This document shows, in pieces, positions 2,428-29,251 of a DNA stretch of 49,524 nt. Position numbers and translations under genes: made by a program. The stretch is from Phormidium sp. FACHB-1136 (GTDB taxonomy: Bacteria; Cyanobacteriota; Cyanobacteriia; Phormidesmidales; Phormidesmidaceae), in assembly GCF_014697375.1 (NCBI RefSeq), contig NZ_JACJRS010000040.1, forward strand, positions 1 to 49,524, written 5' to 3'. Below the pieces are notes generated by a model. That model saw nothing but the letters and a program-made list of their open reading frames with translations, ran no database searches and was not told where the DNA came from. Every line of letters begins with the position of its first letter. Position 1 is the first letter of the stretch.

Positions 2428-2440
2428 GATCAACTCCTTG

Positions 2441-4475
<2,035 letters not shown>

Positions 4476-4479
<4 letters not shown>

Positions 4480-6071: not shown

Positions 6072-6074
6072 TGT

Positions 6075-6731: not shown

Positions 6732-8317
6732 GACTCACCTCCCAAAGAAATATAAAAATCCATTACTTCGATCGCATCAAAATAACCACAGGTATCATCC
6801 AGCCATCCCTGTTCCGCCAACGGAGATTTCAGTCTGTGATCGCTGCCAGGCATGATAGGAAGTGTCTCTAGCTGATAAGCCGTTAGAAACTCTTTGGTTG
6901 CCGCTGGTCCTCGTCGCAGCACTTCTCGTAAAGCTTTAACTTTATTACGCTTCTCTTGCCAGACTTCTCCCGCAAATGCTTTAATGATGGTTTCAAAACT
7001 TGCCCAGTTTTGCCAATCATCAGAGTCAGCATCTAACAGAAGCGGTCGCATTTCTAGGTCCTTACCATCTTGACTGCGGTATTCCCGCTCCCGAATTTCT
7101 GTCAGGTCGCCGAGTAAGCCACTAGCTGCAATATGCCAGTCAATAGCAGAAACTGCTTCTGAACGTTCACCTTCCATTAAAGAAAATCCTCGTTTACACT
7201 TGGCAACTTTTTTGGCAGATTGACACAGGGCTTCGCTGAGTTCATAGGCTCTAGCGAAGGGGTAGTGTGCCTTAACGATACAAACTCCGGCACAGGCAGT
7301 CAGTGATTTACCATCTGCGATTGGTTGCGATTCAAATAACTGAAGGGCGCGGACAGCTAGCGTTAAACCCAGACGACCATCGCAGACAAAGGTGATATCA
7401 TCCCCACCATAAACCAGCGGACGGAAGGGTAATTTTTGTGCTGCCAGATCTAGTGTGTCTTGAAGAACTTCCCAGTTAGCAATGAGTTCTTGAGTCAACT
7501 GCTGGAGGACAGCTTTTCCAGCATTTTCAACACTCTGGGAGAGATCGCGCATGGCAGTGATGTAGTCGCGATCGCTCTTACCTTCAGCAAATGCTTGAAA
7601 TCTTTTTCCCATGCTGTTGCCATCAAGATGCACGACGGCAAGGTAACTCATTTCATCCCTAGAACGCCCGAAATCGTCGAAGTCTAGAGGAATATCCCAT
7701 CCATCGGGCAATTGCAGCGTCTGCTTCAATTGCGTATTGGCAGGTTGCTTATTCTTAGGGTTGACGGCATCTAGCTTCGCTACAATTTCCCTAGAAACTG
7801 GATAGTCCGTAGGCGAACCATGATTCTTGCTTTGATCGACCGCCACCAATCGGGTTGAGTTGCAGTCTTGAGTCACCCCTAAACCTAAGAGAGGAGAAGA
7901 GGGAATGCGCGATCGCTTTTTCACGTCTAGGTCATCTTTCATCATCTCCTGGACTGTATCATAGAGCTGATTTTGACCCCACTTAAAATCATGGCGATGG
8001 GCAACGATCAGGTTAATCCCTGGCGCTTCACTCAGAATCTTAAGACTGAGTTTTTCAGTGAAGCCTATGGCCAGGTCAGCAGACTTAAACAGTAAGACGG
8101 TGTTACCACCTCCGGCATAAACTAGTTCCACATTCTGAGTTTCAACCGAGTCTTCAGGGTTTGTAATCTCAAACTCATTGTGCAAAATTTGCCTGACCCA
8201 GGCATCCGTCACCTGTCCAACAATATAGGACGCACCAATATTTTCCCGCAGGCGGTTGCTGCCAAAAATATAGGACTGAATTCCAGTGGTATCAAGAACC
8301 GTCACAGTTAATTTCAT
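6728..8317 (-). CDS. cas10: Cas10, type III-D, cyclase motif present, no HD domain
   Basis: Large subunit of the effector complex. Its second palm domain makes cyclic oligoadenylates from ATP when target RNA is bound. The catalytic GGDD is intact (YGGDDITFVCDG, GGDD at 304-307). The first palm is degenerate (YAGGGNTVLLF, 67-77). A conserved LDGNSMGKRF (231-240) lies between them. At 529 residues and starting directly with the palm-like MKLTVTVLDTTGIQSYIFG, it lacks the N-terminal HD nuclease, so it should not cut DNA itself, as is usual for III-D. Coupled by 4-base overlaps to the Card1-like gene before and the Cas7 gene after. An intact cyclase next to a CARF protein and a Csx3 protein makes second-messenger signalling very likely. 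Confidence 0.9.
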   Translation of the reverse strand: MKLTVTVLDTTGIQSYIFGSNRLRENIGASYIVGQVTDAWVRQILHNEFEITNPEDSVETQNVELVYAGGGNTVLLFKSADLAIGFTEKLSLKILSEAPGINLIVAHRHDFKWGQNQLYDTVQEMMKDDLDVKKRSRIPSSPLLGLGVTQDCNSTRLVAVDQSKNHGSPTDYPVSREIVAKLDAVNPKNKQPANTQLKQTLQLPDGWDIPLDFDDFGRSRDEMSYLAVVHLDGNSMGKRFQAFAEGKSDRDYITAMRDLSQSVENAGKAVLQQLTQELIANWEVLQDTLDLAAQKLPFRPLVYGGDDITFVCDGRLGLTLAVRALQLFESQPIADGKSLTACAGVCIVKAHYPFARAYELSEALCQSAKKVAKCKRGFSLMEGERSEAVSAIDWHIAASGLLGDLTEIREREYRSQDGKDLEMRPLLLDADSDDWQNWASFETIIKAFAGEVWQEKRNKVKALREVLRRGPAATKEFLTAYQLETLPIMPGSDHRLKSPLAEQGWLDDTCGYFDAIEVMDFYISLGGES

Positions 8318-9621
8318 CGGCCCACCTCCGCATCACTCTCTCGAATCCAACCAATGACTTCATCGGCAAAGTTAGCCAGATGCTTACGCCCAAAGAGTCT
8401 AATTTGCTTTTGTGACAGAAGGTTACCCATTTCAGAGGCTAATCCGCCTAAGTCGTCATTGAAACAAAATAGGGCTACTCTTGCTTCACTGCCGCCAAGT
8501 TGCTGCGATCGCAGGTAGGCTTCAAATAGTTTTGATTTGCATAAACTGCGATCTGATGTTGTCGTACAGGAAATTGCGAACAGTTGATAGCCGTAGGTAA
8601 ACGCTACATCAAATTCAAATCCCTCCTGAGTGCCTTCTAATGGAACTTCAAAGTTCAGTCCATAGTCAGAAATACCAGCTTGATTGACAATTGACTGAAT
8701 ATCGCCAAGAAGATAGTGTTCTAGCCATATACCGTCTAGCCATTTGCAAAAGTGCTGAAGATCTTGAAAGCTTGGATGCTTGTGAACAAGTTCGAGGGAG
8801 AGGTCGTCATCTTGATTCAGAAAACCCTCTTGCTGAAATCCTCCTAAAATTTCCTTCGGCAAACAAGTCGTTGGAAACGATAGTCCCCTGAGATCAGTTT
8901 TTGATTTCCAATTGCCTAGTTTTCCACCTGTCTTTTTAGGTTTTCTTGCCGCCTGGCTAGAATCACCATCTCCCTCACAGAAGATTGAGTAGAACCAATG
9001 AAACCAAGCTCTTCCTTTCGTTGCATCTTTATGAACTTCAGCTAGTCGAGTTGCCAGATTGAGTAGAAGTGGATCTTTAGCGGGTTGCTTATTGTCTTTC
9101 CACTTGAGTCCATGAAGCTCAAAAAGTGTGCTAAGGCTAATCGTGACATCTTTTGAGTAAATAGGAATTCTGAGACTTTCGCCCCCTTCGTTATCAATGC
9201 ATATCTCTAGCCGTCGCGGGTCAAGATAGCTAAAAACTGCTTGCTGCCCCTTCTCCTTTATCTCTCTGAAGACAGCGCGATAGGAATGGACTGCCATGGC
9301 TTTCGTTCCACCCGTATAATTCAGCCCGACTTGATCATTCAAATTCTTTAGAACTTGCTGAATTCTTGCTTGAATTTGATAAGCGTCAGACTCGTATTTT
9401 TCAATAGAAACTAATTGGGCTAACTGAAAATCAGCTAACTCGTTCTTCAAAATCTTTGCCAGACGATTAGCTGATCTTTCAGTTCCAGTGGTATAGACCA
9501 GATAGGGAGTGCCACCTTGTTTGAGCAGTAGTCTGGCTGCCACGTAGTTGGGCAAAGGATTTTCGCCGATTAGTAGAAAAAGATGATCAACTTGGTACGG
9601 ACTAAATTTCGAGGCACTCAC
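8314..9621 (-). CDS. CARF-nuclease-like effector (Card1/Can2, DUF1887 type)
   Basis: A 435-residue protein. The N-terminal CARF-like Rossmann domain has VDHLFLLIGENPLPNY and a ligand-loop motif LNYTGGTKAMA (100-110), expected to bind the cyclic oligoadenylate made by Cas10. The C-terminal part has the layout of a PD-(D/E)xK nuclease: GIWLEHYLL (297-305), an acidic strand FEFDVAF (335-341), then LFAISCTTTS (347-356). In the family the last strand normally reads ExK; here the aligned residues are Ser351-Cys352-Thr353, so nuclease activity is uncertain. The start is GTG at 9621 with AAGGAG 7 nt upstream (9629-9634); an ATG overlapping it is out of frame. First gene of the AT-richer block, 26 nt after csx3. 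Confidence 0.78.
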   Translation of the reverse strand: MSASKFSPYQVDHLFLLIGENPLPNYVAARLLLKQGGTPYLVYTTGTERSANRLAKILKNELADFQLAQLVSIEKYESDAYQIQARIQQVLKNLNDQVGLNYTGGTKAMAVHSYRAVFREIKEKGQQAVFSYLDPRRLEICIDNEGGESLRIPIYSKDVTISLSTLFELHGLKWKDNKQPAKDPLLLNLATRLAEVHKDATKGRAWFHWFYSIFCEGDGDSSQAARKPKKTGGKLGNWKSKTDLRGLSFPTTCLPKEILGGFQQEGFLNQDDDLSLELVHKHPSFQDLQHFCKWLDGIWLEHYLLGDIQSIVNQAGISDYGLNFEVPLEGTQEGFEFDVAFTYGYQLFAISCTTTSDRSLCKSKLFEAYLRSQQLGGSEARVALFCFNDDLGGLASEMGNLLSQKQIRLFGRKHLANFADEVIGWIRESDAEVGR

Positions 9622-9647
9622 ATTTTTTCTCCTTAATGTTTTCTGAT

Positions 9648-10577
9648 CTATGCTTTTCCTGCTAACAATGTCTCGACCTGTTCTAGGAGGACGCCGGGAA
9701 TGCCGTCGGTGGCCCCGCGCAGCCAGGGGCCGCAGGTCATGTCTAGGAAAGGCTGGCGGCGATGGACTTGGAGGGAGCGTTCTAGGGTGCTGTGGATCAC
9801 GGCGACGGGTTTGAGGTTGGCGCGGTCGCGGCAGAACTCGTGCCAGGGTTCGATGGCGTCGGGGTTGGCGCTGATGACGAGGTAGTGGGAGCAGGCATCC
9901 AGCAGGGGCAGTTTGGTGTCTTGCACCTTGCCGCCCACATCGACCAACACCAGGGGCTTTTGGCGGCGCAGCTCAAGGATGCCCTGGGCCTGCCAGGAAA
10001 AGAAGCGTTCGCTGGGGCCACCCTTGAAGGCGCGTTTGAAGGCTTCCTGCTGGTCGGCGGTGGCGTTATCGGGCAGTTCTAGCAGCCAGTTACCTTCGCC
10101 GTCCCAGTTGGCCCGCTGCAAAAAGACATCGGGGTGGCGGGGCAGCAGGGCTTGGAAGAGGGCATGGCTTAGGACGGATTTGCCGCTGTCGGGGGGGCCA
10201 ACGATCAGCAGGGCCGCCCCCAGTCGCGGGGGCAGGGGCATTTTGGGCAGGGGCACCACTTGGCCCACATTGGTTTGGTGGGAGTGGGTGGCGACGACCA
10301 CACCGCCCCCCAGGCGCGGATCGTAGCAGGCGACCCAGGCGGTGGGGTGCAGTTCGTGGACGAGGTGGGCATAGAGCCAGATGGGGGCGCGTCCGGTGAT
10401 GACCACACCGCCCGTGGTGTCGATGCCCGCTGGCAGGGTGAGATTTCCCAGGTCACGGGGTTCGATCAGGCGGTCGGGGCTCGTGAGATCGATGGTGAGG
10501 ATTTGGTAGGTGGCGTCTTGGTGGGTTTGGGGTACGCTCAGGCTGAGGTGAATAGAAGACGGAACGGTGAAGGTCAT
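9648..10577 (-). CDS. csx3: Csx3 (Crn3-like ring nuclease) fused to a P-loop ATPase
   Basis: A 309-residue fusion. Residues 1-108 are Csx3, with the family signature TTGGVVITGRAPIWLYAHLV and then VACYDPRLGGGVVV. Csx3/Crn3 proteins degrade cyclic tetra-adenylate and so damp the signal made by Cas10; the Asp and Arg of YDPRLG belong to the known active region. Residues 120-309 are a P-loop domain with Walker A GPPDSGKS (127-134) and Walker B LVLVDVGG (209-216). Csx3-AAA fusions are known in cyanobacterial type III loci. The ATG at 10577 is chosen because Csx3 homology begins there and GAGG lies 8-11 nt upstream; the frame stays open to 10775 without similarity. First gene of the minus-strand operon but strongly GC-rich, unlike the genes after it. 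Confidence 0.85.
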   Translation of the reverse strand: MTFTVPSSIHLSLSVPQTHQDATYQILTIDLTSPDRLIEPRDLGNLTLPAGIDTTGGVVITGRAPIWLYAHLVHELHPTAWVACYDPRLGGGVVVATHSHQTNVGQVVPLPKMPLPPRLGAALLIVGPPDSGKSVLSHALFQALLPRHPDVFLQRANWDGEGNWLLELPDNATADQQEAFKRAFKGGPSERFFSWQAQGILELRRQKPLVLVDVGGKVQDTKLPLLDACSHYLVISANPDAIEPWHEFCRDRANLKPVAVIHSTLERSLQVHRRQPFLDMTCGPWLRGATDGIPGVLLEQVETLLAGKA

Positions 10578-10640
10578 AGCTACCTCGTCAACGGACAGCA
10601 GCCAACGATCCATAGATGGCTCTGTAGTGGTGTTGCCGTG

Positions 10641-10675
10641 ATTATGGCATTCCCTTGGAATGGGTATCTTCCAAG
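10641..10675 (-). promoter_or_regulatory. Promoter and palindromic operator of the csx3-cas10 operon
   Basis: Reading the minus strand, a perfect palindrome CTTGGAA-N8-TTCCAAG (10675 to 10654) is followed after exactly 7 nt by CATAAT (10646 to 10641), preceded by TG as in an extended -10. No good -35 hexamer exists; the palindrome covers that region. Predicted start of transcription is near 10634, about 57 nt before the csx3 ATG. The same palindrome, the same 7-nt spacing and the same TGCCATAAT occur upstream of cas1. The rest of the 10578-10892 gap holds no gene that I can support. Confidence 0.65.
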
Positions 10676-10892
10676 ATATTGAGGTGGCATGGATAAATGA
10701 ACAGGAACGATCAAGGGAAGCTGAGGCAGGCCAGGAGCCAATATGGAGGGAAACGTGGGGGGCCTTTCCGCTCATCCTGTCCCAGGGCTAACCCTAAGAA
10801 TGCCTGAGTTATCTCCGATAAACAACGGTTTTCCTGCATCGTTTTCCATCGTTTTGTTGGCTTTTTTAGCGTGATGTTACCCCTACTTAACA

Positions 10893-12359
10893 ATGATTCA
10901 GTTTCGTTATGATTCAAACCCTCGGTTGCTTCAGTGGCTGAGTGGGAGCAGTCTGGCCCTGCGGTTACGGCGTACCCTACGGATCTGGGTATGGCTACGG
11001 CTGATCTATGGCGATGGGGCATCACCCCTAGCGGATTTGCCGCCCATCTTTCGCTATGGGGAGGTGCGGGATCGGGTGTTTGCGCCCAGTCATCCCCGGG
11101 ACGATAGGGCCACGGTGGCCGATATGCAGCACCGCTGCGGCGGTAGCCAATGCCTCTGCCAAACCCCCACCGATACCCTGTTGTTTCAGCACCATCCCCT
11201 GTCCTCTGCCCAGCGAGATCAGGCGGACTGGGTGGCGGAAATGGCGGCGCTTAGCGGGCTGACGACGGAGGCGGTGGCGGCGGAACTGCGGGCCTGTGCC
11301 TTTGCGACGGTGCATCGCACCCTACGGGACGACCTGACTTGGCTCACCAAACTGGGCTGGCTGGAGTCGGCGGGGCGGGGGCTATGGCGTAAAAAAGCCC
11401 CCCAGGATTGGCCCACCTTGCCGGAACAGGTCGCGATGGGCTATGGGTCGTCGGACTGGTCGCCCCAGGAGCAGCAACAGGTTTTGGGGGTGCTGGAGGA
11501 AATCGCCTTTTTGCGCCCCCAGTTGGCGGTGGTGGTGGAGACCCTGTGGCAGCAGATTACCGTCCAGCCCCAGCCCTCATTACCGCTGGATCGCCCTCGG
11601 CGCTTGTTTGTGCATTTGGACTATGTGTTGTCCCAGGAGGCCCAGGATCAGGTGGATCAACACCAGCACGATCTAGAGCAGCTTTGGCACAGCCCGGAGG
11701 GGGGCGTGGTGCAGTTCGACTATTTCAGTGCGCGGCGACAGCGGCAAACCCAGGTAACCGCCTACCCCGTGTGTTTGCACTATGCCCGTCGGGCCAAGTA
11801 CCTGACGGTCTATGGCCCCACCCCCCAGGGGAATCTGGGCTGGTGGAACTATCGCCTCGACCGGATTACCTCCCCCCGGCTAAAGGTGCTCCCCTGGGGC
11901 GATCCGGCGATTCCTGAAGACCTGAAGCACCTGCGCCAACGGGGCCAACTGCCTACGCCCACCGTGGTGGAAGGTCACCTAGAGGAGGCCTGGGGGTTTA
12001 ATTTCTATCTGCCGAAGCAATGGTTACTGATGCGCTTTTCCCCCGATTTTGCCCGTTGCTATGTGGATGGCACCGACCGTCACCCCACCTTTGCCCCCGT
12101 GGACTATGGCGATCTGCCCCGGCTGATGGCCGCCCACGCCCCAACTGCCGCCCACGCCCAACTCCTGGCCCTGGTGGCGGATCGTTCGCCCCACGACCGC
12201 TACTACCAGGGCTGGATTCGGGTGGGGGATACCAACGTCACCATGCGCCTGCGCGACTGGCGACCCCAGGGCGAGGTGATCGCTCCTTGGGTGGTGCGCC
12301 AACAGATGATTGCCGAGGCGGAACAGGAACTGCGGCAATACCGAGGTGAGGACGGATAG
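10893..12359 (+). CDS. WYL-domain CRISPR-associated regulator (TIGR03985-like)
   Basis: A 488-residue protein transcribed away from the csx3 operon. The N-terminal half contains helices compatible with a winged helix (TLRDDLTWLTKLGWLES, about 142-158). The C-terminal half holds a WYL-type domain: VVQFDYFSARRQRQTQVTAY, YPVCLHYARRAKYLTVYG and WWNYRLDRI (about 272-325). WYL proteins bind nucleotide ligands and often regulate defence loci. A WYL protein of this group, Sll7009 of Synechocystis, is reported to lower crRNA levels of its locus. It may act on the palindromic operators upstream of csx3 and of csx18/cas1, but this is inference. It is GC-rich like cas1 and csx3 and ends 8 nt from the convergent csx18 stop. 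Confidence 0.75.
   Translation: MIQFRYDSNPRLLQWLSGSSLALRLRRTLRIWVWLRLIYGDGASPLADLPPIFRYGEVRDRVFAPSHPRDDRATVADMQHRCGGSQCLCQTPTDTLLFQHHPLSSAQRDQADWVAEMAALSGLTTEAVAAELRACAFATVHRTLRDDLTWLTKLGWLESAGRGLWRKKAPQDWPTLPEQVAMGYGSSDWSPQEQQQVLGVLEEIAFLRPQLAVVVETLWQQITVQPQPSLPLDRPRRLFVHLDYVLSQEAQDQVDQHQHDLEQLWHSPEGGVVQFDYFSARRQRQTQVTAYPVCLHYARRAKYLTVYGPTPQGNLGWWNYRLDRITSPRLKVLPWGDPAIPEDLKHLRQRGQLPTPTVVEGHLEEAWGFNFYLPKQWLLMRFSPDFARCYVDGTDRHPTFAPVDYGDLPRLMAAHAPTAAHAQLLALVADRSPHDRYYQGWIRVGDTNVTMRLRDWRPQGEVIAPWVVRQQMIAEAEQELRQYRGEDG
10902..10914 (+). promoter_or_regulatory. TTTCGTTATGATT box, possible operator
   Basis: This 13-mer overlaps the first codons of the WYL gene. It differs by one base from TTTCGTTATCATT at 14199-14211 at the start of the CRISPR leader, and resembles TTTCGTTGTAATT beside the leader's -10 box. 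It could be a site for autoregulation of the WYL gene and control of the leader. Being inside coding sequence, it may also be chance. Confidence 0.3.
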
Positions 12360-12900: not shown

Positions 12901-13911
12901 ATGACCACCCTCTACCTCACCGAACCGGGCACCGTGGTGCAATGCCGGAATGAAGCCTTGGTGATTAAGCGCCAGGGCCATGCCCAAACCCTGCGGCTGG
13001 TGGAGGTGGGGTTGGTGGTCGTATTGCCGGGAGTGCAGCTCACGTCCCAAGCCCTGGCGCAGTTGATGGATCGGGGCATTGAAACGCTGTTTCTCACCCG
13101 TGGGGGCCAGTTTCGGGGGCGGCTTCAGGGGCAGTTCCCTACCAATCCTGCCATTCGGCTGGCCCAATATCGCATGGTGGAAACGCCCTTTGGCTTGGCC
13201 CTGGCCCAGCGGCTGGTGGCGGGCAAAATTGCCAATCAGCGGGCGCTGTTGCAACGGCGCAATCGGGCGACTAGGGGCACCCTGGGCGCACTGTCGGAGG
13301 CCATTGATGCCATTGCCGCCTATCGGTCTACCCTGGACCACACGGAAACGCCCCTCAGTCGCGAGGAACTGATGGGGATTGAGGGCATCTGTGCGCGGGC
13401 CTATTTCCAAGGGTTACGCCACTATTTCGACCCCCGCTGGCAGTTTCAGGGGCGCAATCGTCGTCCGCCGCTGGATCCGGTGAATGCCTTGCTAAGCTGG
13501 GGCTATGGGGTGTTGTTGGCCAGGGTGTTTGCGGCCTCGGTGCAGGCGGGCCTAGACCCGTACCTGGGCTTTTTCCATGCCATCGAACCCTATCGGCCCA
13601 ACCTGGTGCTAGACCTGATGGAGGAGTTTAGGCCGCTGGTGGTGGATCAGGCGGTGATTGCCATCCTCAATGAGGGTCTGCTGTCGCCGGAGGATTTTGA
13701 ACCCTCGCCGGATGGGGCCGGAATTTGGGTGGGGGCGGTGGGCAAAAAGCTGTTTTTGGCGGCCCTAGAAAAGCAATTGCGCCAAACTACCGACTATCCC
13801 CCCCAGGGCCGACGGCTGAGCTATGGCCAAATTATCCTAGAGCAGGCCCGTTGGGTGGCCCGCTGTTTGGTGGATCGTCAGCTTGATTACGAACCGATGC
13901 GCCTGCGGTGA
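12901..13911 (+). CDS. cas1: Cas1 spacer integrase
   Basis: Cas1 is the catalytic subunit of the Cas1-Cas2 complex that inserts new spacers next to the leader. At 336 residues it is normal size. Metal ligands are recognisable: Glu161 in MGIEGICARAYFQGL, His226 in LGFFHAIEP, and the acidic cluster LVLDLMEEFRPLVVD (235-249). It starts at ATG 12901; no good ribosome-binding site is near, and the mRNA leader carries a strong hairpin. cas2 overlaps its end by 4 bases. It is strongly GC-rich, like cas2, the WYL gene and csx3, and lies directly upstream of the array leader. Confidence 0.93.
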   Translation: MTTLYLTEPGTVVQCRNEALVIKRQGHAQTLRLVEVGLVVVLPGVQLTSQALAQLMDRGIETLFLTRGGQFRGRLQGQFPTNPAIRLAQYRMVETPFGLALAQRLVAGKIANQRALLQRRNRATRGTLGALSEAIDAIAAYRSTLDHTETPLSREELMGIEGICARAYFQGLRHYFDPRWQFQGRNRRPPLDPVNALLSWGYGVLLARVFAASVQAGLDPYLGFFHAIEPYRPNLVLDLMEEFRPLVVDQAVIAILNEGLLSPEDFEPSPDGAGIWVGAVGKKLFLAALEKQLRQTTDYPPQGRRLSYGQIILEQARWVARCLVDRQLDYEPMRLR

Positions 13912-14195
13912 CCCCGATGCTATGGCTGGTTTGCTACGATGTGGCCGATAATAAGCGCCGCCAAAAGCTGGTAAAGCTGCTGGAACAACGGGGCCAGCGG
14001 GTGCAATATTCGGTGTTTGAATGCCCCCTAACGGAAAAGGAACTGCGCCATTTGCTAGAAAAGCGCTGGCTGAAGGTGCTGAACCTGCGGGAGGATAATC
14101 TGCGGATCTATCCCCTGGATGCCACGGCGAAAAAACGAACCCTGGTGTTTGGTGGCTCCCCACCCTACGAACCACCGGACTATGTGATTCTGTAA
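13908..14195 (+). CDS. cas2: Cas2
   Basis: Cas2 is the small ferredoxin-like dimer that scaffolds Cas1 for spacer integration. It has 95 residues with the typical start MLWLVCYDVADNKRRQKLV, whose Asp is the conserved Cas2 residue, and YSVFECPLTEKEL in the middle. The open frame begins at a GTG overlapping the cas1 stop codon by 4 bases; ATG at 13917 (three codons on) would give the more standard N-terminus. Followed at once by the CRISPR leader. Confidence 0.92.
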   Translation: MTPMLWLVCYDVADNKRRQKLVKLLEQRGQRVQYSVFECPLTEKELRHLLEKRWLKVLNLREDNLRIYPLDATAKKRTLVFGGSPPYEPPDYVIL

Positions 14196-14534
14196 CAATT
14201 TCGTTATCATTTGGCGGCGGGTTGGCCCGGTGTTGATGGCCAAAAGGGCCACCAGAAGCCGGATTTTTTGGCATTGAGAAATGTAACGAAGTTTCGAGTT
14301 TTGTCGCGCCTAGCTGGGGAGCGTTAATCGTCGTAAACAAAACTTCGCTCAACGAAACACGATCTGTTTGCCAAAATTGGCCCCACTTTGTATCTTTTTC
14401 GTTGTAATTTGGCTATAATGACCAAGAAGGCTTGGGTCGATTATGAATGTTTCATCTTGTAAACAACGTTCTCCGTACCCCCGCTTTTTCGGTACCTTGA
14501 AAACTACATATTTCAATAGTTTCCAAAGCCGAGG
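14196..14534 (+). promoter_or_regulatory. CRISPR leader
   Basis: 339 nt, AT-richer than cas1-cas2, between the cas2 stop and the first repeat; no gene. It contains a 17-nt direct repeat, TTTCGTTATCATTTGGC (14199-14215) and TTTCGTTGTAATTTGGC (14397-14413), two mismatches. Further TTCGTT elements lie in inverted orientation near 14282-14290 and 14353-14358. The last part carries the palindrome TTGAAA-N8-TTTCAA (14497-14516), 18 nt before repeat 1. Together with the GAAAC 3' ends of the repeats this fixes transcription and acquisition at this end of the array. Confidence 0.75.
14397..14419 (+). promoter_or_regulatory. CRISPR array promoter
   Basis: A perfect TATAAT (14414-14419) lies directly after the second copy of the leader direct repeat (14397-14413), with no convincing -35 hexamer. 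The direct repeat occupies the spacer between -35 and -10, so a bound protein could control array transcription. The predicted start is near 14426, leaving about 109 nt of leader RNA before repeat 1. Confidence 0.55.
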
Positions 14535-17500
14535 GTCAAACACCCTCAATTCCCCGCAAGGGGACGGAAACGCTTCTTTCAAAGTTTGCCTGTCAACATC
14601 GGCACGGCGTCAAACACCCTCAATTCCCCGCAAGGGGACGGAAACGACTTGGCCACGGTATTCCAGATAATCAGCGTTCAGTCAAACACCCTCAATTCCC
14701 CGCAAGGGGACGGAAACTTGATAAGGCTTACTCTCCCATCGGAGACAGCCTCGGTCAAACACCCTCAATTCCCCGCAAGGGGACGGAAACAGGCCGGGGA
14801 TTCAGTCAACATGATTCCTGTCCTGAGTCAAACACCCTCAATTCCCCGCAAGGGGACGGAAACGGAAAACCTCAGCGAGGAACCGCACATTGTCTACAAG
14901 TCAAACACCCTCAATTCCCCGCAAGGGGACGGAAACAGCGACTCTTGAGGACAGGCACTAGGCGGGTGCCCTGTCAAACACCCTCAATTCCCCGCAAGGG
15001 GACGGAAACAGGTCGTCCCTCGTTAGCCCCCGGTTTTCTCTTGTGGTCAAACACCCTCAATTCCCCGCAAGGGGACGGAAACGTGGATATCGCGGGACAT
15101 AGGTGGCCTACGAAAAAAGTCAAACACCCTCAATTCCCCGCAAGGGGACGGAAACCTGAGATTAATGAGAACATCATCAATCAGCACCTCAATGTCAAAC
15201 ACCCTCAATTCCCCGCAAGGGGACGGAAACAGATGAGGTACCGGATTGACCCACCACCCGCGCATTGTCAAACACCCTCAATTCCCCGCAAGGGGACGGA
15301 AACGTAACGTAGATTCTAGCTCCCTCCGTCGCCATACCATAGTCAAACACCCTCAATTCCCCGCAAGGGGACGGAAACTGTAAAAGAGAGATGGTCTCTG
15401 GCTGAACCCACTGTCAAACACCCTCAATTCCCCGCAAGGGGACGGAAACACTATAAAACACCGAAGTGCCTTTCTGGTCACGGACCAGTCAAACACCCTC
15501 AATTCCCCGCAAGGGGACGGAAACACCTTTTCTCGCTGGAAGTAAGTCCAGATGTCCTCATCAAGGTCAAACACCCTCAATTCCCCGCAAGGGGACGGAA
15601 ACAGAGATCGCCCTAGCCCTGACGGATGCTGTTGACCCCTGGTCAAACACCCTCAATTCCCCGCAAGGGGACGGAAACCATAAAGACCTTCACAGGTCTA
15701 ATATCTGGGTCACAGTCAAACACCCTCAATTCCCCGCAAGGGGACGGAAACTCAATGGACAGCTGCTCCTCGCTAGCAGCATCTTCATTGTCAAACACCC
15801 TCAATTCCCCGCAAGGGGACGGAAACTGTTCTCTCCTTTTTATATAATTCAATCCTAGTTAATCTGTCAAACACCCTCAATTCCCCGCAAGGGGACGGAA
15901 ACCTTCTCAGCCATCAGCTCACAGTACTCCTGCCCATACCAGGTCAAACACCCTCAATTCCCCGCAAGGGGACGGAAACTTAGGAACCCCATCCCAACTG
16001 CAATGTAGGTTTTGGGTCAAACACCCTCAATTCCCCGCAAGGGGACGGAAACTCGGATATTGGTCTCTTCCCCATTGGAGCCCTTCACAGTGTCAAACAC
16101 CCTCAATTCCCCGCAAGGGGACGGAAACTATGCGGTATCAGCCGCAAGTGGCACGACGCTCACCTGTCAAACACCCTCAATTCCCCGCAAGGGGACGGAA
16201 ACACCAAGTTGGCCCCAATATCTCGCCCCTTGATTTTGGCGTCAAACACCCTCAATTCCCCGCAAGGGGACGGAAACAGTAGTTATCTGGCCCTATTAGG
16301 TATCTATATTGTGTGTCAAACACCCTCAATTCCCCGCAAGGGGACGGAAACAGAGATACTCCTGCCAATCTTGCCAGGACTCCTTTTGGATGGTCAAACA
16401 CCCTCAATTCCCCGCAAGGGGACGGAAACGCACAGCCCATGGATGAAAATGGCGAACTCATCACTGGTCGTCAAACACCCTCAATTCCCCGCAAGGGGAC
16501 GGAAACCAATCTCCATCTGTTCTTGGAAGGAGACCTCAAACCCTTCTGTCAAACACCCTCAATTCCCCGCAAGGGGACGGAAACTCTGTTGAGCAAGCTC
16601 TTGAACTGGAGAACTCTACTATGTCAAACACCCTCAATTCCCCGCAAGGGGACGGAAACCCTAATATAGAACTACCTAGGGAACACAATGTAAGAGTCAA
16701 ACACCCTCAATTCCCCGCAAGGGGACGGAAACAGAAGGATGTTGGATAGACATAGTGGTCTCCTACCCTAGAGTCAAACACCCTCAATTCCCCGCAAGGG
16801 GACGGAAACCGTAGGGACGAGAGATATTGCCGATGTGGTTTGGCAACAGTGTCAAACACCCTCAATTCCCCGCAAGGGGACGGAAACGGGAAAGGACTTA
16901 ACCAAACCAGCGGCAATGTCGTCCGCGTCAAACACCCTCAATTCCCCGCAAGGGGACGGAAACACGGAACGAGCCAGCGGGGGGATAAACGGTGACGCAG
17001 TCAAACACCCTCAATTCCCCGCAAGGGGACGGAAACTGAAAAACCTATTAGTGTGAATTGATTATAGTGACCTTTTGTCAAACACCCTCAATTCCCCGCA
17101 AGGGGACGGAAACTTTAACCCAATACCTATATAGAGAATAGGGCTGAGCGTCAAACACCCTCAATTCCCCGCAAGGGGACGGAAACGCTGAGTTTTTCAC
17201 TCTTCTGACGAACGTTGAAGTAGAGTCAAACACCCTCAATTCCCCGCAAGGGGACGGAAACATTTAGAAGCTGGTAAAGATATCACCAGCTTTCCCATTT
17301 GTCAAACACCCTCAATTCCCCGCAAGGGGACGGAAACTACAGTAGTCGGGCACATACCTCCATAGATAGGTTAGTAAAGAGTCAAACACCCTCAATTCCC
17401 CGCAAGGGGACGGAAACCATTGAGGTGGTGCGCTGGGCCAATAAAAAACCCCGGTCAAACACCCTCAATTCCCCGCAAGGGGACGGAAACGCCGCTTCGT

Positions 17501-19143
17501 GGAGGTGCCCTATCGCCAGTAGCTTATGCGTCAAACACCCTCAATTCCCCGCAAGGGGACGGAAACCACCCCAGCCGATCAAGTCCCTCGACATCTCATC
17601 CTCAAGGTCAAACACCCTCAATTCCCCGCAAGGGGACGGAAACCGAATGATGCACCACACACCCCCTAGCAGGAAAGTCAAACACCCTCAATTCCCCGCA
17701 AGGGGACGGAAACATTGAGATCCCCCGGTCAGACCAATCGACCGGACAAAGTCAAACACCCTCAATTCCCCGCAAGGGGACGGAAACTGGGCCTCTCGCC
17801 AAATACGGATTCTACGCGATCAGCTTGTCAAACACCCTCAATTCCCCGCAAGGGGACGGAAACCAAAACCCTAGCCATAAGCCCAGGATGAACACGGCTA
17901 GGGTGTCAAACACCCTCAATTCCCCGCAAGGGGACGGAAACCAACCTTAGAAGCGCTGGCAGCAGCTAGGGCGCGGATACTGCGTCAAACACCCTCAATT
18001 CCCCGCAAGGGGACGGAAACGCCGTTACTTGGGTGCGTGGCTGGGGGGCTGCGGTGTCAAACACCCTCAATTCCCCGCAAGGGGACGGAAACGTTTGAAA
18101 ATGCCTGTGGAGGGGAAGCGGCGGGGGCGTCAAACACCCTCAATTCCCCGCAAGGGGACGGAAACGTTTCGCGAGGGCTTGCCCTTTGCCTATCAACAAC
18201 TCCTAGTCAAACACCCTCAATTCCCCGCAAGGGGACGGAAACGGCTTTTTCATTGCTTGGCATCGGGACGGCTAAGCGACCAGTCAAACACCCTCAATTC
18301 CCCGCAAGGGGACGGAAACCGAGTAGATGCTAGGCAGGCGGCACCCGAACGCCCCCTCACGTCAAACACCCTCAATTCCCCGCAAGGGGACGGAAACGTG
18401 AGCAATCAACGGCAAGTCAGCAATTTTCCAATGAGCGGTCAAACACCCTCAATTCCCCGCAAGGGGACGGAAACTGCGAACTGTCCCCCAGGGCCACGCT
18501 TTACCATGCGTCAAACACCCTCAATTCCCCGCAAGGGGACGGAAACAATCGCTTCGATGAAGGGCCAATACCGCGCATTGATGTCAAACACCCTCAATTC
18601 CCCGCAAGGGGACGGAAACCATACCTGCGCGATGAAATTCAAGGGCTATCCCCTCGTCAAACACCCTCAATTCCCCGCAAGGGGACGGAAACCTTCGGTC
18701 GCTGGCACGATGGGTCTAAGCCCGACTCGGAGGTCAAACACCCTCAATTCCCCGCAAGGGGACGGAAACCTTCCTCAATTTTCTTGTTTCTTTTCTTTTC
18801 ATCCTTTGGTCAAACACCCTCAATTCCCCGCAAGGGGACGGAAACTCAGTTCAGCCGCGAGGGCCAATACGAGAATCAGGAGGGTCAAACACCCTCAATT
18901 CCCCGCAAGGGGACGGAAACCTTGCATCGGAACACGTAGCAAAAATTCTGGAGGCGAGTCAAACACCCTCAATTCCCCGCAAGGGGACGGAAACCTCGAC
19001 AGCCGATCATCCACCAGGCGCACACTGCGAGTCAAACACCCTCAATTCCCCGCAAGGGGACGGAAACATTAACTTGATCCTCCGTGGTGGCCCAATCGGT
19101 TAGAGCGTCAAACACCCTCAATTCCCCGCAAGGGGACGGAAAC

Positions 19144-19180
19144 ACCGTGGAGGGGGCCATTGCAGAAGGCATTGAGTTGA
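19144..19180 (+). repeat. Spacer 62, identical to spacer 84
   Basis: A 37-nt spacer starting ACCGTGGAGGGGGCCATTGC and ending GAGTTGA. The same 37 nt recur at 20792-20828. The flanking spacers on both sides differ between the two places. Confidence 0.97.
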
Positions 19181-20791
19181 GTCAAACACCCTCAATTCCC
19201 CGCAAGGGGACGGAAACCAGGAGTTCATCACGAAGGTCTCGCTCTGCATCCCGCGTCAAACACCCTCAATTCCCCGCAAGGGGACGGAAACAATTGCCTG
19301 AAGTTCCTGCTCAGTCTTCCCATGCAACCGTCAAACACCCTCAATTCCCCGCAAGGGGACGGAAACCATTAGGCTTTTTGGATGAAGCGCTCACTAAATG
19401 CCGTGCCGGTCAAACACCCTCAATTCCCCGCAAGGGGACGGAAACACCTACATCATTTTCTTGGAGCCAGCCGACGATGCTCAGCCGTCAAACACCCTCA
19501 ATTCCCCGCAAGGGGACGGAAACCTCCTGCTGTTCCGCAGTCCAAGTTCGCTTGTCCTTGGTCAAACACCCTCAATTCCCCGCAAGGGGACGGAAACGAC
19601 GGGCATAGGTGATCGCGGAGCCGTTACGCTGCCCATCGGTCAAACACCCTCAATTCCCCGCAAGGGGACGGAAACTACATTAGCGGGGGCTACGAGTGCG
19701 ATGCCCTTGATGTCAAACACCCTCAATTCCCCGCAAGGGGACGGAAACCGACCAGCCTACAGCCCAGCTCCTCGATCAGCTCCTCCAGGTCAAACACCCT
19801 CAATTCCCCGCAAGGGGACGGAAACGAATGCCCTCTACGGCATTGAAGATGTCCTTCATGGCAATGTCAAACACCCTCAATTCCCCGCAAGGGGACGGAA
19901 ACCAAAATGGCCTGGGCCTCCCCCACCACATCTGTCTCATCGTCAAACACCCTCAATTCCCCGCAAGGGGACGGAAACGGGCCAGCAGCTTTTGGATCTT
20001 CTTAACAATCGAGTGTCAAACACCCTCAATTCCCCGCAAGGGGACGGAAACAAAGTTTTATCTGAACCTGTTACATCAATAGCCATGTCAAACACCCTCA
20101 ATTCCCCGCAAGGGGACGGAAACGAATTGCAGGCGACAACAGGGCCAGGGTGGCGCTTGATGTCAAACACCCTCAATTCCCCGCAAGGGGACGGAAACGG
20201 GGCTTGAGAGCGGGGCAACTTAGCGACGATTGGAGGTCAAACACCCTCAATTCCCCGCAAGGGGACGGAAACACCTTTGAAGGCTATGGTACTTCTGAAA
20301 AAGAAGCTCTTCGTCAAACACCCTCAATTCCCCGCAAGGGGACGGAAACTCAAAATCGAAATGTTTCTGTTCCACCACCACCATGGTCAAACACCCTCAA
20401 TTCCCCGCAAGGGGACGGAAACTTCGTTTGCGTCAAACCTAAAGCAGCTACGGCCCTCAGTCAAACACCCTCAATTCCCCGCAAGGGGACGGAAACCTAA
20501 AAAAGATCAAGTATAGGAAATACCATGTTTTGTCAAACACCCTCAATTCCCCGCAAGGGGACGGAAACCATCTACTCCTAGGAGGGAGCCGTGATTCAAG
20601 TCAGCGTCAAACACCCTCAATTCCCCGCAAGGGGACGGAAACCACAGTCATGTGCGATAGCCTGCAACTTCAAATACCAAAGTCAAACACCCTCAATTCC
20701 CCGCAAGGGGACGGAAACCTGCTGGGATCGGGCCCAGGTCAGAAGGGGCCAGAAGTCAAACACCCTCAATTCCCCGCAAGGGGACGGAAAC

Positions 20792-20828
20792 ACCGTGGAG
20801 GGGGCCATTGCAGAAGGCATTGAGTTGA
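20792..20828 (+). repeat. Spacer 84, identical to spacer 62
   Basis: Second copy of the spacer at 19144-19180, same length and same boundaries, 22 units further from the leader. Confidence 0.97.
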
Positions 20829-23800
20829 GTCAAACACCCTCAATTCCCCGCAAGGGGACGGAAACAATGTCAATTACACTATTAACCCCCTCCATAAACT
20901 CGTCAAACACCCTCAATTCCCCGCAAGGGGACGGAAACTCAACAATATACCCCAACCTCCCTTAAACTTGTCCTTAAGTCAAACACCCTCAATTCCCCGC
21001 AAGGGGACGGAAACGATCCTCAATTTCTTCTTCTTCCACAAATTGCTTGATCCCGTCAAACACCCTCAATTCCCCGCAAGGGGACGGAAACTGACACAGA
21101 CGGGGGTTCTTCCACCTCAATCGAAAATCCGTCAAACACCCTCAATTCCCCGCAAGGGGACGGAAACGGTGGTGACGGTTTGGCGACCGCCTACGGGAAT
21201 CATCACGGGTCAAACACCCTCAATTCCCCGCAAGGGGACGGAAACAGTTGAACCATACATCCCCCTTCCACTATAGTCTTGAGTCAAACACCCTCAATTC
21301 CCCGCAAGGGGACGGAAACAAAGTTTTTTCAATCTTAGTATGATTTTGGCCCCAAGTCAAACACCCTCAATTCCCCGCAAGGGGACGGAAACGTACGCTC
21401 AAAATTCCCCTCGACCAAGCGCAATTTGGTCAAACACCCTCAATTCCCCGCAAGGGGACGGAAACAAATGGACGGGCGACCCGACCTACGCCCAGGCGTT
21501 GGAAGTCAAACACCCTCAATTCCCCGCAAGGGGACGGAAACTCCCAGAGTGCAGCGCCCCTGCAAATAGCCTGAATCTAAGACGGCTTGAGTCAAACACC
21601 CTCAATTCCCCGCAAGGGGACGGAAACCCTGTGGCAAGGGCTGGATTCCCCGATCTAAGAAATGGTCAAACACCCTCAATTCCCCGCAAGGGGACGGAAA
21701 CTCAACTTCCAACGACACCGAAGCCGTGGAAGTGGTGATAGCGTCAAACACCCTCAATTCCCCGCAAGGGGACGGAAACCGGTCTGGCCATCGCCCGTAA
21801 AGCTGATGCGCTTTGGTGTCAAACACCCTCAATTCCCCGCAAGGGGACGGAAACAACTTAAAGTGGTGACAGTCACTAATATGGGCTTTGTTCACGTCAA
21901 ACACCCTCAATTCCCCGCAAGGGGACGGAAACATAAATTAAATTAGTATGTTCAACAAAAAGGCAAGGTCAAACACCCTCAATTCCCCGCAAGGGGACGG
22001 AAACCTTGATCTTGTTCGAGTAGGGGATGTGGTGCGTCGTCAAACACCCTCAATTCCCCGCAAGGGGACGGAAACCAATGATTCGGGCGACATATTTGGG
22101 ACTGAATATAGTCAAACACCCTCAATTCCCCGCAAGGGGACGGAAACAAGGTGCCTCGTTAATGAAACGAATGCTGGTGTCTAGTCAAACACCCTCAATT
22201 CCCCGCAAGGGGACGGAAACGCCTTGGACGCGGTCCACTGGTCATCGGTCATCAGGCATGGTCAAACACCCTCAATTCCCCGCAAGGGGACGGAAACACT
22301 TAACTCGATATTCAGAGAAAAATGATAATGAATATTGTCAAACACCCTCAATTCCCCGCAAGGGGACGGAAACGGGAAAACCCAGTTTGTTCAGGGAAAT
22401 GAGGCGGTTGGGGGTCAAACACCCTCAATTCCCCGCAAGGGGACGGAAACGACAACGGTGTGTATCTGGGCAGTGAACGGCTACTTGGCGTCAAACACCC
22501 TCAATTCCCCGCAAGGGGACGGAAACGCTAGTTGGATTGTACCATCCTTGTGCCCTAAAGGGCAGGGCGTCAAACACCCTCAATTCCCCGCAAGGGGACG
22601 GAAACGAGGGGGTATCCCGACTCGTCCTGGCTCTCGGCCACATGGTCAAACACCCTCAATTCCCCGCAAGGGGACGGAAACGAGAAGGGGTTTAGCGGGG
22701 CTTGAGAACGATGGGGTTAGTGTCAAACACCCTCAATTCCCCGCAAGGGGACGGAAACTGGCCGTCTGAACTCATCGACACGATGCACCATTGGGTCAAA
22801 CACCCTCAATTCCCCGCAAGGGGACGGAAACAATTCTTGTTCGTTCAAGAAGCTAAAAGAAGCAACGGTCAAACACCCTCAATTCCCCGCAAGGGGACGG
22901 AAACTTTTTATTATGCTTCTATACTATATACGCTATAATGAGTCAAACACCCTCAATTCCCCGCAAGGGGACGGAAACTGATCCTTGCGGCCTGGATAGT
23001 TGCCACCTTTTCCTTGGTCAAACACCCTCAATTCCCCGCAAGGGGACGGAAACGTTGATCGAAGTCGAGCATGTCGTAGATTTTTCGGAGTCAAACACCC
23101 TCAATTCCCCGCAAGGGGACGGAAACAGTATCTGACATGAGCGTCCACTACCTCCAGTTCATGTCAAACACCCTCAATTCCCCGCAAGGGGACGGAAACG
23201 TTTGAAAAATTTATTTTCAACAACCTCGTACCCATCGTCAAACACCCTCAATTCCCCGCAAGGGGACGGAAACATTCATGGGCGAACTTTTCAGTACCCA
23301 CGAACTTAGAGTCAAACACCCTCAATTCCCCGCAAGGGGACGGAAACGCAACAGTACGGGAAAACTGCCAGTTCTCAATGGGGTCAAACACCCTCAATTC
23401 CCCGCAAGGGGACGGAAACTGGTCGTGATAGTGCCTGGGTTGTGCAGGTGAATTGGCGGGTCAAACACCCTCAATTCCCCGCAAGGGGACGGAAACCCCA
23501 TGTTTTTTGTACTGGTCAACGTACTGAATTTGGTCAAACACCCTCAATTCCCCGCAAGGGGACGGAAACCCCCAGCGATGGCCCCGCCCCGTGGCGGGAG
23601 GAACCCTGCGTCAAACACCCTCAATTCCCCGCAAGGGGACGGAAACAAAGGTTAATTCCTTTTCTTCTTCCTCGGTAAAGCCTACTTGTCAAACACCCTC
23701 AATTCCCCGCAAGGGGACGGAAACGTGAAAATGCCAACCGCAGGGCCGGACACCACATCACCGTCAAACACCCTCAATTCCCCGCAAGGGGACGGAAACC

Positions 23801-25183
23801 GTCATCCACAACGACGGGGACGGCCCCGCTCACCACAGGGTCAAACACCCTCAATTCCCCGCAAGGGGACGGAAACTTAAATCGGCGGCGGGTCTTTGGC
23901 GTAATCTTAAACATGTCAAACACCCTCAATTCCCCGCAAGGGGACGGAAACAGGAAAATAGTGAAATTGTCAGCATTGTCAATTTTGGTCAAACACCCTC
24001 AATTCCCCGCAAGGGGACGGAAACTGTAGTTGAGAATCTCATAGGCAGATTCTCGCGTGGTCAAACACCCTCAATTCCCCGCAAGGGGACGGAAACCAGA
24101 GGCGTTGTCTATAGGGATGGTGTTCAGCGGGTGTCAAACACCCTCAATTCCCCGCAAGGGGACGGAAACCATCCCGCAAGCCAGGTAGTTGCCCCCATGG
24201 GTTTGTCAAACACCCTCAATTCCCCGCAAGGGGACGGAAACTTCCCGTGCGATTTAGTACAGCTTGAATTGTTGGCGTCAAACACCCTCAATTCCCCGCA
24301 AGGGGACGGAAACTTGACTTGGGGGCACTGCGGATGGAACCGGGACACGATTGGTCAAACACCCTCAATTCCCCGCAAGGGGACGGAAACTCAGGGTTGA
24401 GGAGCATATCAAGCTCGTCTTCATCTGTCAAACACCCTCAATTCCCCGCAAGGGGACGGAAACCTTCCTCCTGCGACACTCCAAAGTGCATCTGGCCGTA
24501 GTCGGTCAAACACCCTCAATTCCCCGCAAGGGGACGGAAACATCGTATCAACGGTGCCGCTGGCACTCGAATACTTCCACGTCAAACACCCTCAATTCCC
24601 CGCAAGGGGACGGAAACACAGGTATACATTGTTGACCTCAAAAACACTCACAAATAACAGTGTCAAACACCCTCAATTCCCCGCAAGGGGACGGAAACTC
24701 AAAGTCTGACCAGGGTAGAGCCAAGGTCACACCGAGTCAAACACCCTCAATTCCCCGCAAGGGGACGGAAACAGGTATTCACCACGCCAATCCCAGGCGT
24801 CAACAAGGGTCAAACACCCTCAATTCCCCGCAAGGGGACGGAAACTCTTGAACGAATTCACACCAAACACTCCACACCCACCCGTCAAACACCCTCAATT
24901 CCCCGCAAGGGGACGGAAACTTCAACTCTTTAAGCTGTTCCCATTTCTCGTATAGGGCAGGTCAAACACCCTCAATTCCCCGCAAGGGGACGGAAACACC
25001 TCTGAGTAAAAAAGTTCGAAAGAGAAAACCTTGGAGTGTCAAACACCCTCAATTCCCCGCAAGGGGACGGAAACGAGTCTACCTTTGCTATGGGATTGTT
25101 TTGAAATCTGTCAAACACCCTCAATTCCCCGCAAGGGGACGGAAACTGCAATCGCAACTCGCCGACGCCGACCTTGGCCGGGG

Positions 25184-25220
25184 GTCAGACACCCTCAATT
25201 CCCCGCAAGGGAACGGAAAC
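25184..25220 (+). repeat. Degenerate internal repeat 143
   Basis: Differs from the consensus at position 5 (A to G, GTCAGAC) and position 29 (G to A, which breaks one C-G pair of the stem). The only other repeat with the position-5 change is the terminal one, 26853-26889. Degenerate repeats are typical of the distal end of an array, so this may mark a former array end. Confidence 0.9.
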
Positions 25221-25640
25221 GCTGCTGAGTTGTAATCGTCGAGAGCGCTACCGCAGCAAAAAGTCAAACACCCTCAATTCCCCGCAAGGGGACGGAAACG
25301 AACGTCACGACTGGTATTGTCAGGCAAGTATAGTTCCTGGTCAAACACCCTCAATTCCCCGCAAGGGGACGGAAACAGTCTCTGCGCCATCGGGGAAAAA
25401 ATCCACGATTTCAGCGTCAAACACCCTCAATTCCCCGCAAGGGGACGGAAACTTCGTCCACGTTGAAAGTCCATAACTTCTTTCCTTCCTTTGTCAAACA
25501 CCCTCAATTCCCCGCAAGGGGACGGAAACGTACAGATGAAGATGTAAGGCAGACCAGCGTGGTTACGTCAAACACCCTCAATTCCCCGCAAGGGGACGGA
25601 AACCGCAATGGCAAAGCGCACGTTGTCGCTGCGATCAAAC

Positions 25641-26743
25641 GTCAAACACCCTCAATTCCCCGTAAGGGGACGGAAACCCGAGATGATGGGGAGTTATTCC
25701 TTGGCGCGGCTGTCGGTCAAACACCCTCAATTCCCCGTAAGGGGACGGAAACGCGTAGGCGGTTGATCACGTCGCTGGTTGAAACATAGGTCAAACACCC
25801 TCAATTCCCCGTAAGGGGACGGAAACGGCATTGAGGTGATCTACCCCAGTGCCGACGGCATCACCGTCAAACACCCTCAATTCCCCGTAAGGGGACGGAA
25901 ACGCCAGGATACTGAGTTGGCTATCCCCCTGGCTACGGTCAAGGCGTGTCAAACACCCTCAATTCCCCGTAAGGGGACGGAAACCTGTCGCTGGTGATTT
26001 CATAGCTGTAGTTCATCGTGTCAAACACCCTCAATTCCCCGTAAGGGGACGGAAACCATGTGATTCGGCTTAGCCCCGGTTCTCCCTGCCGGGGCGTCAA
26101 ACACCCTCAATTCCCCGTAAGGGGACGGAAACCCCATTCTCTTAGCGCTTCCTTTGGGACGGTTGTCACGGTCAAACACCCTCAATTCCCCGTAAGGGGA
26201 CGGAAACCCGGACGCCTCCACAGCAACGGTAAGACCTCCAGCGGGGCGTCAAACACCCTCAATTCCCCGTAAGGGGACGGAAACTTGCTGGTCAGGTATT
26301 CAAGGGTGTGTTTCATGGTTGCCTGTCAAACACCCTCAATTCCCCGTAAGGGGACGGAAACTGCATGACCTTGTAGCGCTGGGGGTTGCGTAGGGGTTTG
26401 GCCGTCAAACACCCTCAATTCCCCGTAAGGGGACGGAAACGGAAGGACGGTGGCCCCCCGGTAGCGCTTGTAGGGAATCTGTCAAACACCCTCAATTCCC
26501 CGTAAGGGGACGGAAACTGGGCTAGGGCTAGATGGCAATGGAAGCGACTGGAAAGTCAAACACCCTCAATTCCCCGTAAGGGGACGGAAACCCAAATGGC
26601 GGAAGGAGAGAAGTCGCCCAAGATTGAGGAAGTCAAACACCCTCAATTCCCCGTAAGGGGACGGAAACGCCACGGCGGACAGCAACTTTAGTTTTCATGG
26701 TCAATAGTCAAACACCCTCAATTCCCCGTAAGGGGACGGAAAC
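25641..26743 (+). repeat. Block of 15 variant repeats (149 to 163)
   Basis: Fifteen consecutive repeats carry T instead of C at repeat position 23, giving CCCCGTAAGGGG. Repeats 1-148 and 164-165 have C. The change falls in the loop and converts GCAA to GTAA, both GNRA tetraloops, so the RNA fold should be kept. Confidence 0.95.
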
Positions 26744-26889
26744 ACGGCATCCGATAGGGTTTCAGCGAACTTCACAGGGGTCAAACACCCTCAATTCCCC
26801 GCAAGGGGACGGAAACTTCTTGGCCAGGGCATCTACGACCCCCTTAAGCCAGGTCAGACACCCTCAATTCCCCGCAAGGGGACGGAAAC

Positions 26890-27269
26890 CTAGGATAAAG
26901 TTTTCTCGTACTGACTGTCGCCTCTGCCCACACCGAGACTTGTGTACAAAAGGCAAGTCGGAGCCGAGGTCGCTCACATTGCGGCCTCAAGCCGCACATG
27001 AGGCTATCCAAGCCGTCCGGCAAGCACAAGTGACAGAGGAATGGAAATCTCGATACAACGTACGCGCAGGGATTGAAGGTACACTCTCGCAAGGCATCCG
27101 TGTCTTCGGAATGAGACGAACGCGCTATATCGGGCTGGCTAAGACACACCTACAGCATTTGCTTACAGCCGCCGCAATGAACGTCGTGCGGCTAGCGAAT
27201 TGGCTGGCAGGGGTTCCCCGTGCCAAGACACGAACTTCTCGCTTTGCAGCGCTCAACCCGGCTACTTAG
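26890..27269 (+). pseudogene. IS1182-family transposase, C-terminal fragment
   Basis: Directly after the last repeat the plus-strand frame encodes a transposase C-terminus: KFSRTDCRLCPHRDLCTKGK, then EEWKSRYNVRAGIEGTLSQG, MRRTRYIGLAKTHLQHLL and AAMNVVRLANWL. This is the end of the DDE domain of IS1182-type transposases, including the acidic residue of RAGIEGT. The N-terminal two thirds are absent and the frame runs into the repeat, so the gene was cut at the array boundary. No terminal inverted repeat was identified at either side. Positions 27270-27380 show nothing recognisable. Confidence 0.78.
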
Positions 27270-29105: not shown

Positions 29106-29213
29106 CCTAAATCCTAGTAGAGTATAGATCTTAGCTCTTGTCTTAATTGTTACTTCGACTACTTTTTATCCTCTTATTTGCGGTTCTTAACAAAAGGGTA
29201 GACGATTAATTTC

Positions 29214-29250
<37 letters not shown>

Positions 29251-29251
29251 A

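What the first reader, a model, noticed from the sequence alone, without database searches (positions are those of the whole stretch)
25641..26743. Fossil stratum of repeats with a fold-preserving loop change
Repeats 149-163 all have T at position 23, turning GCAA into GTAA. Both are GNRA tetraloops, so selection on RNA fold would tolerate it. New repeats are copied from the leader-side repeat, so the block marks a period when that repeat carried T. The return to C in repeats 1-148 needs a reversion, recombination or joining of arrays.
Basis: partly seen in the sequence, partly recalled or inferred. Interest (0 to 1): 0.6.

Follow-up and report, generated by a model that had tools for sequence, protein, structure and literature searches.

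The report
Variant-repeat layer inside a CRISPR array
A cyanobacterial CRISPR array holds a run of 15 repeats with one changed letter, a layer left from a time when the copied repeat carried that letter; the later return to the old letter is better explained by exchange between arrays than by a second mutation.

Summary
The array belongs to a type III-D CRISPR system of a cyanobacterium related to Nodosilinea. The loop reading holds: GCAA and GUAA repeats fold alike (-9.2 kcal/mol both), and in one congener all 52 repeats of an array have T at this place (GTAA in 50, TTAA in 2). The "stratum" reading also holds. The open question was the return to C. In 120 arrays (4009 repeats) I found internal there-and-back blocks with unique spacers here and in three other genomes (14, 26 and 3 repeats), against six one-way changes. 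A mutation-only simulation giving about seven one-way changes expects 0.01-0.04 returns; 0 of 400 runs gave three. Two more blocks carried copied spacers, and one relative has an array of two joined repeat types. I therefore favour repeat-mediated recombination or conversion over back-mutation. No strain sharing spacers was found, so the event is inferred. Repeat 143 shares a change with the terminal repeat and may mark a second join.

The parts
25641..26743 (+). Block of 15 repeats (149-163) with C23T, loop GTAA in place of GCAA, with their 14 enclosed spacers
   Evidence: fold
14535..26889 (+). CRISPR array, 165 repeats of 37 bases, 164 spacers (mean 38.1 bases)
14196..14534 (+). Leader region between cas2 and the first repeat; its end carries CCTTGAAAACT and GTTTCCA, as in most of 12 sister loci (by eye)
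   Evidence: extent inferred
26780..26889 (+). Oldest repeats 164 (consensus, C23) and 165 (terminal, A5G, C23)
25184..25220 (+). Repeat 143 with A5G and G29A; shares A5G with the terminal repeat; possible scar of an array join
   Evidence: inference
25604..25640 (+). Spacer 148, leader-side border of the block; ends ATCAAAC, 6 of 7 like the repeat start (only such case in 164 spacers, noticed after the fact); not leader-like
12901..13911 (+). cas1
13908..14195 (+). cas2
   Evidence: PF09827, 79.1 bits, cut-off 23.8
211..10775 (-). III-D effector operon: Cas7-type proteins, Csx19, Csx10/Cas5, Cas10d, a CARF-PD-DEXK protein and Csx3
10893..12359 (+). CRISPR-associated WYL regulator (TIGR03985)

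Best explanation
The array grew from the leader side, each new repeat copied from the leader-adjacent one (established biology). Early in its history the leader-adjacent repeat changed C23 to T; the change was neutral for the crRNA hairpin (GCAA to GUAA), and the following acquisitions copied it, leaving 15 T repeats. The leader-adjacent position then became C again through homologous recombination at the repeats: a crossover with an array copy that had kept C (another chromosome copy in a polyploid cell, or incoming kin DNA), or short conversion of the leader-adjacent repeat. It was probably not a second mutation. The later repeats, 148 now present, copy that C. Shown: the block, its borders, equal folds, recurrence in other genomes. 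Inferred: the order of events, the recombination step and its partner; polyploidy was not tested.
For: Exact block with C on both sides. Same architecture with unique spacers in three genomes not chosen for it: L216 (G008) repeats 30-43 of 46, L230 (G032) 36-61 of 78, L220 (G001) 19-21 of 28 (recounted). One-way changes in the same 120 arrays number six (L112, L115, L116, L171, L240, L254). Mutation alone at a rate giving about seven one-way changes expects 0.013 returns with 37 free sites and 0.037 with 5, and 0 of 400 runs reached three. Array rearrangement is visible in relatives: G025 has a 14-repeat A8G block made of one amplified spacer unit; G054 has an array with repeats 1-7 of one type and 8-12 of another sharing the 3' core; PCC 7117 has copied spacers 9-15 behind a variant block, at a contig end. 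When C returned, the part of the array now left held 15 T and 2 C repeats, which makes a donor outside it likelier (inference).
Against: No second array of this repeat exists in the genome today, and pattern and cas1 searches turned up no strain sharing this array, so the partner is hypothetical. C23T has arisen several times in the class, so the site is mutable and a true reversal is possible. The T block is unbroken, so conversion inside the array cannot be frequent. The survey is small, its arrays are of unequal relatedness, and blocks were classed partly by eye. In L220 the variant also stands in the terminal repeat, so that case is less clean. At a change rate three to four times higher than seen, with only five free sites, 3 of 400 runs did reach three returns.
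Confidence: 0.6

Rival explanations
1. Plain mutation and back-mutation: the leader-adjacent repeat changed C to T and later T to C.
For: Needs no partner; the GTAA core occurs once in each of five of 388 genomes, so the site mutates readily; both loops fold alike.
Against: In mutation-only simulations returns are some 80 to 230 times rarer than the three seen outside this window, even with only five free sites. In this array only positions 5, 23 and 29 vary at all.
Confidence: 0.2
2. Growth inside the array: one repeat mutated once and new spacers were then inserted at that inner repeat (ectopic acquisition), so the block needs a single mutation.
For: One mutation suffices. Ectopic acquisition in Streptococcus thermophilus arrays is on record (titles seen in the reference list of PMC8047081), and that review says Cas1-Cas2 of some systems integrate at other repeats in vitro (passages seen). 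Spacer 148 ends in ATCAAAC, like the repeat start (noticed after the fact).
Against: The spacer upstream of the block is not leader-like: 6 of 20 matches, 62nd percentile; likewise unremarkable in L216, L230 and L220. Some fourteen insertions at one inner site would be needed.
Confidence: 0.12
3. Assembly artefact: segments of different arrays or strains were mis-joined.
For: The PCC 7117 contig end shows how an array can break in assembly; the window comes from a 260-contig assembly.
Against: 162 of 164 spacers occur once and serve as anchors; the one identical pair (62 and 84) lies far from the block. Clean blocks also occur in G032 (3 contigs) and G008 (2 contigs).
Confidence: 0.05

Closest known systems
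Repeat variants in CRISPR arrays (S. agalactiae CRISPR1, PMC4466440, passages seen)
   Same: Rare single-base repeat variants in an otherwise uniform array; degenerate terminal repeat; duplication of the leader-end repeat.
   Different: There variants are 1.5% of repeats, listed by lineage; no internal layer with a return is described in the passages I saw.
Array rearrangement by recombination between repeats, and array collapse and repopulation (review PMC8047081, passages seen)
   Same: Homologous recombination between repeats as the agent; repeat polymorphisms used as traces of past events.
   Different: The passages speak of deletion, duplication and collapse; here the trace is a return of the ancestral base with the variant block kept.
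CRISPR arrays beside cas1 orthologues in other cyanobacteria (L107-L118; effector type not tested)
   Same: 37-base repeats ending CCCC-loop-GGGG-A-C/T-GGAAAC; 11 of 12 have GCAA, L113 has GAAA.
   Different: The survey flagged no internal there-and-back block in these 12; L115 has a leader-end block C37T in repeats 1-11 of 81.

Membership tests
CRISPR array | Regular repeats with unique spacers beside cas1-cas2 and a leader | tested here: met
   165 repeats, 164 spacers of 163 sequences; cas1 and cas2; leader-end motifs like those of most of 12 sister loci, by eye
Type III-D CRISPR-Cas | Cas10d, Csx10 and Csx19 in one operon | tested here: met
   PADLOC Cas10d E 1.2e-145, Cas5_IIId E 5.4e-167, Csx19 E 6.8e-40; Csx19 over the NCBIfam cut-off (129.8 against 35), Csx10 147.6 bits, under its cut-off of 177.3
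Type III-D CRISPR-Cas | Cas6 to process the repeat RNA | tested here: inconclusive
   No Cas6 among the 20 window proteins scanned (frames beyond 43288 were not scanned); two Cas6 matches elsewhere in the genome, C220 and C82; which one serves this array is unknown
Stratum copied from a leader-adjacent variant repeat | Contiguous run of one variant with distinct spacers | tested here: met
Array joined by recombination | Partner array or strain that shares spacers on one side of the border only | tested here: inconclusive
   Repeat-pattern searches of 96 and 63 genomes, own included, and of genome contigs, a cas1 scan and a search of 60 family genomes with the block's DNA (list cut, hits not checked one by one) showed no such partner
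Amplified repeat-spacer unit (as in G025) | Same spacer repeated through the block | tested here: not met
   All block spacers differ; the G025 block has one spacer throughout

The most novel reading that the evidence does not exclude
Leader-adjacent repeats of cyanobacterial arrays are often reset to the ancestral base by exchange between array copies (for example among chromosome copies of a polyploid cell), so long arrays are mosaics and their order is not a simple time line. In this array both the return to C at 148/149 and the odd repeat 143 would then be joins, 143 being the former terminal repeat of a regrown array.
Probability: 0.3. Interest if true: 0.6.

Novelty: new member of a known kind. 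Interest (0 to 1): 0.4.

Why it matters
Spacer order is widely read as a chronological record. If blocks that return to the ancestral repeat are nearly as common as one-way changes, arrays are joined or converted more often than spacers alone reveal, and silent repeat variants become a marker for it. The G001, G007 and G025 arrays, with one repeat in T and C forms, would let both loop forms be compared in processing and acquisition.

Tried and rejected
Target matches to date the spacers: the block gave none in phages (E up to 1) or plasmids (E up to 1e-5); the leader-side part 14535-20500 gave three weak phage places, E 0.1-0.5, all on one spacer. Exact 24-base cores of three spacers (149, 150, 146) gave none in viral contigs. 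In the own genome the two best matches to 24000-26890 outside this array (E 0.095 and 0.33) turned out to be spacers of other arrays (contigs C220 and C89) that share 19 bases with block spacer 159; the weaker ones were not followed.

Different origin of the block by base composition: block spacers have 57% G+C against about 50%, permutation p 0.019, but the best change point for the whole array is not significant (p 0.18). Not relied on.

Leader mimic in front of the block: not supported. Frequent conversion within the array: rejected, since the T run is unbroken. PCC 7117 (L145) first looked like a second clean return; withdrawn because the return carries copied spacers at a contig end. G025 (L217) was withdrawn because its block is one copied unit.

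Rows left out before the counts: own-genome fragments and short pattern loci (L001-L039, L069-L098, L187-L198, L208-L215), L186, L255, L256; arrays under 6 repeats; duplicates (three or more shared spacers). After the count I set aside: blocks in the first or last repeat column where the repeat's edge is unsure (L067, L105, L156, L172, the second array of L202), L253 (not oriented, perhaps no CRISPR), the blocks near the trailer of L200 (inner repeats 9-10 and trailer repeats 9-11, in an old, mixed part) and that of L202 (repeats 5-6, indel-shifted). L115's one-way block also stands in the last column but was kept, because all 81 repeats share that edge with sister L117. L202's A10/C10 return, ending in a single repeat, was seen by eye and not counted. 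Earlier versions of the survey gave 64, 121 and 123 arrays; they differ in loci and in duplicate removal.

Papers: eight of ten searches used. Passages were seen only in PMC8047081 and PMC4466440, the rest as search listings. I met no account of a there-and-back block in these, which is not proof that none is in print.

Full report
What is there. The window holds a CRISPR array of 165 repeats and 164 spacers at 14535-26889. It belongs to a type III-D system: the minus-strand operon 211-10775 encodes Cas7-type proteins, Csx19, Csx10/Cas5, Cas10d, a CARF protein and Csx3; a WYL regulator, cas1 and cas2 precede the leader. The genome has this one array with this repeat and arrays of another repeat on contigs C220 and C89.

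The observation. Repeats 149-163 differ from the consensus by C23T alone; 148 of 165 repeats are consensus; 143 has A5G and G29A; 165, the terminal one, has A5G. The block is contiguous beyond chance (2e-19). Both loops give the same hairpin at -9.2 kcal/mol.

Is the change tolerated? Among 88 surveyed arrays with a 4-bp GC-rich stem and a 4-nt loop, 64 have GNRA loops: 56 GCAA, 4 GAAA, 2 GTAA, 2 GTGA. In one congener (G001) all 52 repeats of one array carry T at this place, 50 as GTAA and 2 as TTAA, while the same 34-base repeat has GCAA in 44 of 44 repeats of G025 and in 13 of 14 close copies of G007. Among 388 genomes of the class, seven have the GTAA form of the core: 50 copies in G001, 15 here, one each in five others. 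So the change is recurrent, mostly stays single, and can fill an array.

How the block arose. New repeats copy the leader-side one, so a run with distinct spacers is a layer in time.

Why C came back. In 120 arrays with 4009 repeats (recounted; rows left out are told under Tried and rejected), four have an internal block of at least two repeats with unique spacers and the same base on both sides: this window (15), L216 of G008 (14), L230 of G032 (26) and L220 of G001 (3, where the terminal repeat carries the variant too). Six arrays have a one-way change: L115 at the leader end; L112, L116, L171, L240 and L254 at the trailer end. Two more internal blocks carried copied spacers (L217 of G025; L145, PCC 7117) and are put down to unit copying or to a contig end. 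A simulation of mutation alone over the same array lengths, set to give about seven one-way changes, expects 0.013 returns with 37 free sites and 0.037 with five; none of 400 runs gave three or more. Only at a rate giving 22 one-way changes, with five free sites, did 3 of 400 runs reach three. The window itself was chosen for its block, so three is the fair number. Back-mutation is thus a poor general account, and recombination or conversion a better one. Rearranged arrays seen directly in relatives agree: the G054 array at C2, about 203.4-204.3 kb, has seven repeats of one type on the leader side and five of another behind, sharing only the 3' core.

Limits. No strain that shares spacers with this array was found: T-form pattern scans of genome contigs and viral contigs gave none; the nearest cas1 (88%, G005) sits at a contig end without array; 60 genomes of the family searched with the block's DNA gave matches in other arrays at mostly 64-76% identity or over short repeat cores, in a cut list that I did not check one by one. 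So the exchange partner and the order of events are inferred. The spacers could not be dated.

Repeat 143. Two changes in one inner repeat, one of them shared with the terminal repeat, suggest a former terminal repeat: the array may be a join of a regrown array (1-143) with an older tail (144-165). The review PMC8047081 (passages seen) reports collapse and repopulation with such repeat traces. Similar reappearance of terminal-repeat variants a few repeats inward is seen in L173, L179, L185 and L220. This is a lead, not a result.

Noticed in passing
window 19144-19180 and 20792-20828 (spacers 62 and 84): Two spacers 22 units apart are identical over all 37 bases while their neighbours differ; re-capture of one protospacer or a small exchange.
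   Followed up: partly
window 26441-26480 (spacer 159, inside the T block): Shares 19 identical bases with a spacer of the genome's second array on C220 (E 3e-7 among 164 x 115 spacers) and with one on C89: arrays of two repeat families hold overlapping spacers, apparently from one target.
   Followed up: partly
window 26697-27266: The array's trailer end runs into an open frame with a DDE transposase domain (PF13751, 93.6 bits); looks like a truncated insertion-sequence relic behind the last repeat.
   Followed up: partly
L217 (G025:C4:1114000-1130000): One spacer occurs 16 times, 15 of them in tandem, with the A8G repeat variant; a strongly amplified repeat-spacer unit in a genome of 10 contigs.
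   Followed up: partly
L201 (G054:C2, about 203.4-204.3 kb): Array built of two repeat types, 7 then 5 repeats, sharing only the 3' core.
   Followed up: partly
L173, L179, L185, L220: A variant of the terminal repeat reappears a few repeats inward with consensus repeats between; in L173 the change covers all four loop bases (CTTG to GAAA).
   Followed up: no
L220 (G001:C1), leader end and spacer 1: The last 16 or so bases of the leader recur at the end of spacer 1, as if leader and spacer had exchanged or been copied.
   Followed up: no
window 27384-43288: Beyond the array: an amidase, an IS1-type transposase gene, two amidohydrolases, an NMT1-like binding protein, a transporter permease and hydantoinase A/B genes; perhaps an uptake and breakdown cluster for a hydantoin-like compound.
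   Followed up: no
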